NCBI GenBank assembly: GCA_030448005.1 | Contig: JAUJNT010000002.1 | Coordinates: forward strand, 628,925-679,450 | From: Thermoleophilaceae bacterium | GTDB taxonomy: Bacteria > Actinomycetota > Thermoleophilia > Solirubrobacterales > Thermoleophilaceae | Reading direction: 5' to 3' | Length of the DNA: 50,526 bases | Shown here: piece after piece, positions 57-2,310 of the stretch | Layout: the number at the start of each line of letters is the position of its first letter | Position numbering within the stretch: the first letter of the stretch is position 1 | The notes under the pieces: model-generated | Told to the model about the DNA's origin: nothing | The model's database searches: none | Seen by the model: only the letters and a program-made list of their open reading frames with translations | Translations under genes and position numbers: made by a program

Positions 57-88
57 CGAGGGGCCCCGTGTCCGTACGGGGCCCCTCG
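57..88 (-). terminator. Hairpin terminator after the secreted-protein gene
   Basis: A perfect 13-bp stem (57-69 paired with 76-88) encloses a 6-base loop, 42 bases past the stop of the minus-strand gene ending at 131. Read on the minus strand it is followed by TCGTTTCC, only weakly T-rich. Confidence 0.7.
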
Positions 89-130: not shown

Positions 131-721
131 TCAGTCGGCGTCCGTGATCTTGACCTTGCGGATGTTGACCGCGCCGTAGCGCTCGGCCACGCTCTGCCCT
201 GCCGCGGCGCACTTCTTGCGCGTCACGGCGACCTTGCCGACGATGCGGACCCGATCGCCCGCGGTGGGGCTCTCGCCTGTCCCGTAGTCGGACAGCTGCA
301 CCCTGAACGGATCGTTCGTGCCGGCCGTCGGGGTGCCGTCAGCCGTGAACGAGCCGCCGTCGACCTGTACTCCGGGCGTGGTTGCGTCCTTGTCGGCGAG
401 CTCGCCGGAGACCCTGGCGTGGCGGTTGGCTCCGGTCACGGTGATGACCACGTTGGCCTCGTTGGCGTTCGGCGTGTCCGGATTGTCGGCCGTGTAGCTC
501 ACGAGCGTGCCGCGCACCACGAAGCCCTTGTTCACGGTCGGCTTCTTCGCGCAGCTCCTGCCCTGGCCCTTGCTCTTCCCGTGGCCCTTGGCCTTGGCCT
601 TGCCCTCGGCCTTTGCGCCCGGCTGGTGGCTGTCCTTGTGATTGGCGTGGCCAACCGCGGGTACAGCGAGCAGAGCGCCGGCAGCTACGAGTAATGCAAG
701 GGACTGAGTTCGCTTGATCAA
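131..721 (-). CDS. Secreted protein of unknown function with a Lys/Gly-rich segment
   Basis: I do not recognise the family. The TTG start at 721 is chosen because AGGAGG (728-733) lies 6 bases upstream; a GTG ten codons earlier would sit before that ribosome site. The 196-residue product begins with two positive residues and a hydrophobic stretch ending in AVGHA, a convincing Sec signal peptide. A Lys/Gly/His-rich linker follows (about residues 30-55), then a mainly beta-type domain with two cysteines that could bridge (CAKK near 57 and KKCAAAG near 170). Words such as 'GTLVSYTADN' and 'GDRVRIVGKV' suggest an OB-like or beta-sandwich fold, which is inference. It is divergent from the ECF sigma gene and shares its control region, so it may be a target of that sigma factor. 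Confidence 0.75.
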   Translation of the reverse strand: MIKRTQSLALLVAAGALLAVPAVGHANHKDSHQPGAKAEGKAKAKGHGKSKGQGRSCAKKPTVNKGFVVRGTLVSYTADNPDTPNANEANVVITVTGANRHARVSGELADKDATTPGVQVDGGSFTADGTPTAGTNDPFRVQLSDYGTGESPTAGDRVRIVGKVAVTRKKCAAAGQSVAERYGAVNIRKVKITDAD

Positions 722-827
722 GATCTTCCTCCTGAGGCGTGGTGGGTTCACAGCCTCTAACGCGGCACGGGCCGGAAGGTTCGTCGGAGGCGCGGCGTCT
801 GAGGCACCCCTCGGCGTTGAGTTCCAG

Positions 828-862
828 CGAACCTTTGACGACCGGGCGCGTTCAAAGGTTCG
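828..862. promoter_or_regulatory. Perfect inverted repeat; candidate divergent ECF promoters
   Basis: CGAACCTTTGA at 828-838 is repeated in inverse at 852-862 with a 13-base spacer. On the minus strand GAACC (861-857) is followed after 16 bases by CGTC (840-837), which matches the general ECF promoter layout of GAAC then CGTC. On the plus strand GAACC (829-833) is followed after 15 bases by CGTT (849-852). The site lies between the ECF sigma gene and the divergent secreted-protein gene. An operator is the main alternative. Confidence 0.55.
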
Positions 863-903
863 ATGCGGTTGGCACGGACTCGTCCACAGGGCACAATAGA
901 GCT

Positions 904-2310
904 ATGGCCCACGGGATCAGCGTTCCATCCGGTGGCCGAGCGATCTCGCGCGGCCCGAAGCGCTTGCTCGCCCTCCGGGGCGACGAGCACCTGGTCGAGC
1001 GCCTCCGGCGCGGAGACGAGACGGCCTTCGAGGTCATCTACGAGCGGCATGTCCACGGCCTGCTCTCCTTCTGCCGGCACATGCTCGGATCACGGGAGGA
1101 GGCCGAGGACGCCGTCCAGCAGGCCTTCACCGCCGCCCACCGCGATCTGCTGCGTGACGACCGCGAGATCCGGCTCAAGGCCTGGCTCTACACGATCGCC
1201 CGCAACCGCTGCCTGTCCATGCTCCGCGCGAGACGGGAGCAGCCCGAAGAGCGCATCGAGGCGAGCACGGAGGGCCTCGCCGATCAGGTCGAGCAGCGTG
1301 CCGACCTACGTGAGCTCCTCGCGGATCTGCACGATCTACCCGAGGACCAGCGCGCCGCGCTCGTCCTGTCGGAGATGCGCGATCTCTCCCACGCCGAGGT
1401 GGCTGAGGTGCTGGGCTGTCGGGTTGCGAACGTGAAGGGCCTGGTCTTTCGTGCGCGGTCCGGGCTCAGCGAGCGCCGCGAGGCGCGCGAGGCCGCGTGC
1501 GAGTCGATCCGCCAGGAGCTGGCCACCGCGCAGGGTGGAACCCTGCGACGAGGCAGGCTTCGCCACCACCTGCGCGCCTGCACCGGGTGCTCCGGCTACC
1601 TCGAGGAGGTACGCAGGCAGCGGCAGATGATCGCGATGATCCTCCCCGTCGCTCCGTCGCTCGGGCTGAAGTCGGGGGTCCTCGCCGCGGTTGGCATAGG
1701 CGGCGGCGCAGCCGGGGGCGGCGGCGCGGCGGCGGGCGGTGGCCTCCTGGCGGCGCTCTTGCCAGGGAGCGGCGCGACCGTGGCCAAGGTGGCGGTCGTG
1801 GGCGCCCTCGTTGCAGGCGGGGGTGGCGTGGCGGGCCAGGTCGCGCTGGACTTGGACGGTTCGCCGCCCGATGCGCGGCCCGCGATGGCGCCGCAGAGCG
1901 CCTCCGGCCAGCCAGCGAACTCCCCCTTCGACGTGGCCGAGCTGCCCAAGGCAGCGAGGCCTGAGGGGACTGGGTCACCGCGCGAGACAGCCGACGATGC
2001 GCGGCAGGCCAAGAAGAAGGGGAAGGGCAAGGAGAGCGGGAAGGCAAAGAAGAGGGGAAAGGGCACGAAGAGCCCGTTCGGCGCACGCCCGGACCGGGGA
2101 ACCGCCGGCCGCGGCCCGAAGGTGCGCGCCGAAAAACCCGTACGCAACCTTGCGCCCCGCGGCGTCCCAAAGCTCGACCGGACCCCTCGGCGCCCGGACG
2201 TCCAGGCGGCCCCGCCCACCGAGCCGAGGCTCAAGAAGAACGCGCCGAAGAAGAACGGCGGCGCCGTCGGCAAGAAGACGCCGCCGGCGCCGATCGCGCC
2301 CGACGGTTGA
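904..2310 (+). CDS. ECF-type sigma factor with fused zinc-finger, membrane segment and basic tail
   Basis: Directs RNA polymerase to a specialised promoter set. With the ATG at 904 the product is 468 residues, far longer than a usual ECF factor of about 200. Region 2 lies near residues 31-105 (aromatic-rich 'LKAWLYTIARNRCLSMLR'), and region 4 with its helix-turn-helix near 130-190 ('LSHAEVAEVLGCRVANVKGL'). A zinc-binding anti-sigma-like motif follows, H222-xxx-C226-xx-C229. Next come a Gly/Ala-rich hydrophobic part with a possible membrane helix (about 293-312) and a Lys/Gly/Pro-rich tail. The fused module may hold the sigma domains at the membrane or self-inhibit; that is inference. The Lys/Gly tail resembles the linker in the divergent secreted protein. 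An in-frame start 55 codons upstream would overlap the inverted repeat and is less likely. Confidence 0.85.
   Translation: MAHGISVPSGGRAISRGPKRLLALRGDEHLVERLRRGDETAFEVIYERHVHGLLSFCRHMLGSREEAEDAVQQAFTAAHRDLLRDDREIRLKAWLYTIARNRCLSMLRARREQPEERIEASTEGLADQVEQRADLRELLADLHDLPEDQRAALVLSEMRDLSHAEVAEVLGCRVANVKGLVFRARSGLSERREAREAACESIRQELATAQGGTLRRGRLRHHLRACTGCSGYLEEVRRQRQMIAMILPVAPSLGLKSGVLAAVGIGGGAAGGGGAAAGGGLLAALLPGSGATVAKVAVVGALVAGGGGVAGQVALDLDGSPPDARPAMAPQSASGQPANSPFDVAELPKAARPEGTGSPRETADDARQAKKKGKGKESGKAKKRGKGTKSPFGARPDRGTAGRGPKVRAEKPVRNLAPRGVPKLDRTPRRPDVQAAPPTEPRLKKNAPKKNGGAVGKKTPPAPIAPDG

What the first reader, a model, noticed from the sequence alone, without database searches (positions are those of the whole stretch)
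828..862. Perfect inverted repeat that reads as ECF promoters in both directions
GAACC-N16-CGTC on the minus strand and GAACC-N15-CGTT on the plus strand occur within one palindromic element between an ECF sigma gene and a secreted-protein gene. Such symmetry would let one sigma factor drive its own gene and a target divergently. The two proteins also share Lys/Gly-rich tracts, which hints at joint function.
Basis: partly seen in the sequence, partly recalled or inferred. Interest (0 to 1): 0.6.

Follow-up and report, generated by a model that had tools for sequence, protein, structure and literature searches.

The report
ECF sigma autopromoter with divergent target
A membrane-tethered bacterial stress sigma factor and a neighbouring exported protein each have their own matching promoter, a layout conserved in related soil bacteria; the eye-catching palindrome between them is real but is probably not what drives both genes.

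Summary
The palindrome is real: perfect 11-bp arms, 828-838 and 852-862, spacer 13. Both GAACC...CGT readings are at the stated places.

Comparative data separate the three. Upstream of ECF orthologues in the order, AAC[CT]-N15-CGT[TC] occurs in sense at 19 of 27 loci. Other spacings give 0-1; N16, the palindrome's minus-strand reading, gives none. A matrix from 26 sites outside this genome ranks +829-852 and -782-759 first and second in the window (23.6, 21.5 bits; next 14.2). The palindrome's minus-strand reading scores 5.9. The palindrome is absent from relatives.

Seven loci in three genera, this one included, have two outward-facing promoters between the ECF gene and an exported-protein gene. 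So "one sigma factor drives itself and a divergent target" is supported, but through two separate promoters.

The sigma factor carries a C-terminal zinc anti-sigma motif, a membrane segment and a low-complexity tail, as in ECF48/52/53. A leaderless sigma-70-type promoter adjoins its start codon. This is a new member of a known kind with a predicted regulon of exported proteins. No step has been tested experimentally.

The parts
131..721 (-). Exported-protein gene (196 aa from TTG 721, signal peptide, Lys/Gly/His-rich N-terminus, no Pfam or NCBIfam family). GTG 751 is an alternative start.
   Evidence: AGGAGGA ribosome-binding sequence about 6 nt before TTG 721. Single-sequence fold too poor to use (pLDDT 42).
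57..88 (.). Strong hairpin (13-bp perfect stem) just downstream of the exported-protein gene; probable terminator, without a T run.
   Evidence: One search lists the stem; one search finds no T-tailed terminator.
759..782 (-). Predicted ECF promoter of the exported-protein gene: GAACCTTCCGGCCCGTGCCGCGTT; predicted start of transcription about 750-752.
   Evidence: second-best matrix hit in the window, 21.5 bits; equivalent divergent promoters in relatives.
828..862 (.). Perfect palindrome (11-bp arms, 13-nt spacer). Its left arm is the -35 region of the ECF autopromoter, its right arm covers the region from -10 to +1.
   Evidence: not found at orthologous promoters.
829..852 (+). Predicted ECF autopromoter of the sigma gene: GAACCTTTGACGACCGGGCGCGTT; predicted start of transcription about 859-860.
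   Evidence: Best matrix hit in the window, 23.6 bits; conserved upstream of orthologues with fixed spacing.
837..861 (-). The palindrome's minus-strand promoter-like reading, GAACC-N16-CGTC; probably not a promoter of this sigma factor.
   Evidence: Off-consensus spacing; 5.9 bits ungapped, 10.0 with the spacer shortened by one base.
869..897 (+). Probable sigma-70-type promoter TTGGCA-N17-CACAAT ending 6 nt before ATG 904, so a leaderless transcript.
   Evidence: only match in 1-1000. Same in the paralogue L017 (TTGGCA-N17-GACAAT-N6-GTG). A -10-like hexamer at exactly -12 to -7 of a possible start codon at 11 of 29 loci, background 0.18% per start codon.
904..2310 (+). ECF sigma factor (468 aa) with fused anti-sigma-like C-terminus: sigma2 residues 45-111, sigma4 142-185, zinc motif C199...H222-x3-C226-x2-C229, one membrane segment about 280-317, Lys/Pro/Gly-rich tail.
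   Evidence: Start codon supported by the paralogue's N-terminus.
1498..1590 (+). Codons of the conserved zinc anti-sigma motif.
   Evidence: Alignment of 29 family members: C...H-x3-C-x2-C kept in nearly all.

Best explanation
This is the divergent control region of an autoregulated, membrane-tethered ECF sigma factor. A basal leaderless transcript from a sigma-70-type promoter (869-897) supplies the sigma factor, which is held inactive at the membrane by its own zinc anti-sigma-like domain and membrane segment. When an envelope signal frees the sigma domain, probably by proteolysis, it binds two separate outward-facing promoters of the type [CG]AACCT-N14-CGTT: 829-852 (+), amplifying its own gene, and 782-759 (-), expressing the exported protein. 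The palindrome arises because the autopromoter's -35 arm happens to be mirrored around its start site; it is probably not a functional bidirectional promoter. Shown by sequence: the sites, their ranking, conserved spacing and conserved divergent layout. Inferred: that this sigma factor, not a paralogue, reads them; the membrane inhibition; release by proteolysis; the envelope signal.
For: Spacing: AAC[CT]-N15-CGT[TC] in sense at 19 of 27 orthologue loci, other spacings 0-1. A matrix from 26 sites outside this genome puts the two sites first and second among all positions of both strands of the window, with a gap to the third. Divergent outward-facing promoter pairs in 7 loci of 3 genera. An independent exported protein family (repeats YGTNKNxRNAFGKC) carries the same promoter with the same fixed spacing, linked and unlinked to the ECF gene (7 of 13 genes at N15, 0 at 10-14 and 16-20). 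A scan of 61 genomes with a strict pattern gives 24 matches against 5 for the reversed control, and the genes downstream of the intergenic matches are mostly ECF orthologues and exported proteins. Zinc motif conserved. Literature: AAC and CGT are the usual ECF -35 and -10 boxes and autoregulation is common (PMC8103513); ECF48/52/53 have the same domain order and are expected to be released by proteolysis (PMC8999054).
Against: No expression or transcription-start data. The matrix was built from sites chosen by pattern, so high scores of pattern-matching sites are partly built in; the spacing spectrum is the less circular evidence. The closest paralogue (L017, 63%) has only a degenerate site (CACCTT-N13-CGTT, 6.4 bits), though at the same 51-nt distance to its start codon. 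About 8 of 27 orthologue loci lack a clear site. The genome has several other ECF factors that could share the specificity. Pfam does not report a zinc anti-sigma domain; the motif was read from the alignment.
Confidence: 0.8

Rival explanations
1. One reading: the palindrome itself is a bidirectional ECF promoter, with the minus-strand reading at 861-837 driving the exported-protein gene, alone or in tandem with 782-759.
For: The minus-strand reading keeps a perfect GAACCTT and CGTC, and CGTC occurs in two orthologue sites. The palindrome is rare within a 182-bp region (6 of 3000).
Against: Spacing is one base too long: 0 of 27 loci at N16. 5.9 bits, 10.0 if shortened. A better site lies nearer the gene. 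The palindrome is absent from relatives.
Confidence: 0.08
2. The palindrome is an operator: a dimeric repressor or activator binds its two arms, which span the autopromoter from -35 to +1, and tunes the sigma gene.
For: Perfect 11-bp arms placed exactly over the core promoter; rare for this short region.
Against: No such repeat at 26 comparable promoters (the repeats seen in L039 and L044 are pairs of outward -35 boxes). No regulator is known to recognise it. Window-wide, such repeats are not rare.
Confidence: 0.12
3. The promoters are real but read by another ECF factor of this genome (for instance the 63% paralogue at C8 or one of several more distant ones), so the loop is cross-regulation and not autoregulation.
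For: 19 ECF-like matches in the genome; close paralogues may share specificity.
Against: The site follows this ECF gene across the order, which is the usual sign of autoregulation.
Confidence: 0.1

Closest known systems
ECF52 (SCO4117 of Streptomyces coelicolor; PMC5826349)
   Same: Single protein with sigma domains, zinc finger, membrane segment and long low-complexity C-terminal extension; evidence of positive autoregulation; two promoters for its own gene.
   Different: No carbohydrate-binding module found here. The putative motif of that paper (CSGYN-17bp-SRHA) is not the motif here. No divergent exported partner is described in the passages read.
ECF48 and ECF53 (actinobacterial, PMC8999054)
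   Same: C-terminal fusion with zinc-finger and membrane portions expected to act as an anti-sigma factor released by proteolysis.
   Different: Group membership could not be tested (no ECF group models on hand). Neither is described for this order in the passages read.
Classical autoregulated ECF factors with AAC / CGT boxes (PMC8103513)
   Same: -35 AAC, -10 CGT, fixed spacing, autoregulation.
   Different: The anti-sigma part is fused, not a separate co-transcribed gene; the conserved target is a divergent exported protein.

Membership tests
ECF (group IV) sigma factors | sigma2 and sigma4 regions only | tested here: met
   PF04542 E 1.2e-15 and PF08281 E 7e-12, above cut-off
ECF (group IV) sigma factors | Promoter with AAC at -35 and CGT at -10, fixed spacing, upstream of own gene | tested here: met
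   19 of 27 loci at N15, 0-1 at other spacings; window site 23.6 bits
ECF48/52/53-like fused ECF factors | C-terminal zinc anti-sigma motif | tested here: met
   C...H-x3-C-x2-C conserved in nearly all of 29 members; Pfam does not score it as a zinc-finger family
ECF48/52/53-like fused ECF factors | One or two membrane helices and a long extracytoplasmic extension | tested here: met
   Hydropathy: one clear segment from about residue 280, low-complexity tail; prediction only
ECF52 | Carbohydrate-binding module at the C-terminus | tested here: not met
   No such Pfam match in the window protein or four relatives
ECF48, ECF52, ECF53 | Membership by group profile | not testable with these tools
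   No ECF group models available; in NCBIfam only the ECF superfamily model passes its cut-off among the hits shown
Bidirectional (palindromic) promoter | Both readings fit the sigma factor's consensus with correct spacing | tested here: not met
   Minus-strand reading is N16 and 5.9 bits, against an N15 consensus
Bidirectional (palindromic) promoter | Palindrome conserved at orthologous promoters | tested here: not met
   Absent from 26 comparable sites
Leaderless genes | -10 hexamer at -12 to -7 of the start codon | tested here: met
   CACAAT, 6 nt, ATG with TTGGCA 17 nt upstream; 11 of 29 loci. Transcript itself not tested

The most novel reading that the evidence does not exclude
The site belongs to an uncharacterised, order-wide regulatory unit of Solirubrobacterales: a self-tethered ECF sigma factor with a dual-mode gene start (leaderless basal transcript plus leadered autoregulated transcript) that controls a set of fast-diverging exported low-complexity proteins, and in this genome perhaps also two copies of a small structured RNA that follow perfect GAACCTT-N13-CGTT promoters.
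Probability: 0.35. Interest if true: 0.55.

Novelty: new member of a known kind. Interest (0 to 1): 0.36.

Why it matters
It gives a testable promoter motif, [CG]AACCT-N14-CGTT, and a predicted regulon of exported proteins for a family of membrane-tethered ECF factors in a poorly cultivated order of soil actinobacteria. It also shows that a striking palindrome next to a promoter can mislead: spacing conservation across relatives separated the working sites from the symmetrical look-alike.

Tried and rejected
Palindrome as divergent promoter: rejected on spacing, score and lack of conservation. Palindrome as an RNA hairpin: it folds well (-16.2 kcal/mol, z -3.5), but the predicted starts at 859-860 (+) and 750-752 (-) leave it outside those transcripts, so not favoured; no Rfam match in 500-1200. 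Shared Lys/Gly tracts as homology: rejected. Structure of the exported protein: single-sequence model at pLDDT 42, not used. Covariance model of the C2/C4 RNA in relatives: only weak matches (best E 0.002), without the promoter upstream, treated as chance. The own-genome hit at C8:665487 scores high (26.7 bits), but by reading the sequence it lies in what looks like a coding frame, so it may be chance.

Full report
1. What is there. The palindrome CGAACCTTTGA-N13-TCAAAGGTTCG at 828-862 is exact. The plus strand reads GAACC-N15-CGTT (829-852) and the minus strand GAACC-N16-CGTC (861-837). These three are the only GAACCTT-N11-15-CGTY matches in 50.5 kb, against 0.12 expected.

2. The genes. On the right is an ECF sigma factor of 468 aa starting at ATG 904; the start is supported by the paralogue L017 (63% identity over residues 2-437), which begins at the matching place with GTG. 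Pfam gives sigma2 and sigma4 above cut-off. The C-terminal part has a zinc anti-sigma motif, C199...H222-x3-C226-x2-C229, kept in nearly all of 29 family members, then one membrane segment and a low-complexity tail. On the left is a 196-aa protein with a signal peptide (read by eye) on the minus strand. TTG 721, with AGGAGGA in front, is the likeliest start; GTG 751 is possible. It has no Pfam or NCBIfam family and few homologues (4 of 61 genomes including its own).

3. Chance. Perfect inverted repeats of this size occur about 0-3 times per 50 kb in a Markov model, and the window has five distinct ones; inside the intergenic region such a repeat appears in 6 of 3000 simulations. So the palindrome is noteworthy at its place but not exceptional for the window.

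4. Comparative test. Relatives of the ECF protein were collected and 250 bp upstream of each start examined. AAC[CT]-N15-CGT[TC] is found in sense in 19 of 27 loci; all other spacings from 9 to 22 give 0 or 1. This spacing spectrum is a strong sign of a conserved autoregulatory promoter and is largely free of selection bias. N16, the spacing of the palindrome's minus-strand reading, has none.

5. Ranking. A matrix from 26 sites outside this genome ranks 829 (+) first (23.6 bits) and 782 (-) second (21.5) among all positions on both strands of the window; the third scores 14.2. The palindrome's minus-strand reading scores 5.9, or 10.0 when its spacer is shortened by one base. Caveat: the training sites were chosen by pattern.

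6. The divergent layout. Seven loci in three genera, including the window, have two outward-facing promoters of this type between the ECF gene and a divergent gene; the gap between them is 12-69 bp (46 in the window). Where the neighbour could be read, outside the window it is an exported protein of a repeat family (YGTNKNxRNAFGKC) unrelated to the window's protein. Other genes of that family, not linked to the ECF gene, carry the same promoter: N15 spacing in 7 of 13 genes in all, none at other spacings. The window genome's own copy (C6:299270) has TAACCT-N14-CGTT 70 bp upstream, though it scores only 6.5 bits. A strict pattern scan of 61 genomes gives 24 matches against 5 for the reversed control; the intergenic matches lie mostly upstream of ECF orthologues, the repeat proteins and a second exported family (L204, L208).

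7. The palindrome in relatives. No comparable repeat is found at 26 related promoters; the repeats in L039 and L044 are pairs of outward -35 boxes. I conclude that the palindrome is probably incidental, with a smaller chance that it is an operator.

8. A second promoter. TTGGCA-N17-CACAAT (869-897) ends 6 nt before ATG 904. The paralogue has TTGGCA-N17-GACAAT-N6-GTG. A -10-like hexamer at exactly this distance from a possible start codon is found in 11 of 29 family loci, while the background rate is 0.18% per start codon. A basal leaderless transcript is therefore likely.

9. Mechanism. Shown by sequence: sites, spacing, ranking, layout. Inferred: that this sigma factor reads both sites; that its own C-terminus holds it at the membrane; that a signal outside the cytoplasm frees it by proteolysis, as expected for ECF48/52/53 (PMC8999054) and suggested for SCO4117 of ECF52 (PMC5826349); that the exported protein acts at the cell surface.

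10. Known and new. AAC and CGT boxes and autoregulation are hallmarks of ECF factors (PMC8103513). Fused zinc and membrane extensions are known in ECF48/52/53. No paper on such a factor in this order was among those listed from the held library. I file it as a new member of a known kind; its ECF group could not be assigned here.

11. Taxonomy.

Noticed in passing
L012 1404-1524 (-) and L014 1406-1524 (-) (G000:C2:150077 and C4:140523): Two copies of a similar region of about 100 nt (GAGGTC...GTCGC..CCA.GGA.CGGGGCAAGGAA..CCC.CGACGRCCTC, then a long GC-rich hairpin) follow perfect GAACCTT-N13-CGTT promoters (18.7 and 21.5 bits); possible ECF-driven small RNA. No Rfam match over that stretch; no convincing copy in 60 relatives; fold z-scores modest.
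   Followed up: partly
L013 1501-1524 (-) (G000:C4:10873): Perfect GAACCTT-N13-CGTT 140 bp upstream of a gene resembling a polyprenyl sugar transferase; candidate regulon member.
   Followed up: partly
L169-L180: Exported repeat-protein family (AAKECxAER...YGTNKNxRNAFGKCVS) in 14 of 41 genomes searched, often with the ECF promoter and in several genomes next to the ECF gene; function unknown.
   Followed up: partly
L204, L208: A second exported family (DLTVAAKPNPVVFGKSTVISGK...) with strict matches of the same promoter 7-32 bp upstream.
   Followed up: no
L014 2813-2887 (+): c-di-GMP-I-GGC riboswitch near the second RNA copy, just at the gathering score.
   Followed up: no
L017, about 1390-1480: A run of N (withheld or masked bases) lies in the low-complexity tail of the paralogous ECF gene.
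   Followed up: no
26 promoter sites, position -6 from the 24-mer: A strongly preferred A (22 of 26) 6 bases before the -35 box in relatives, but T at both window promoters; unexplained.
   Followed up: no
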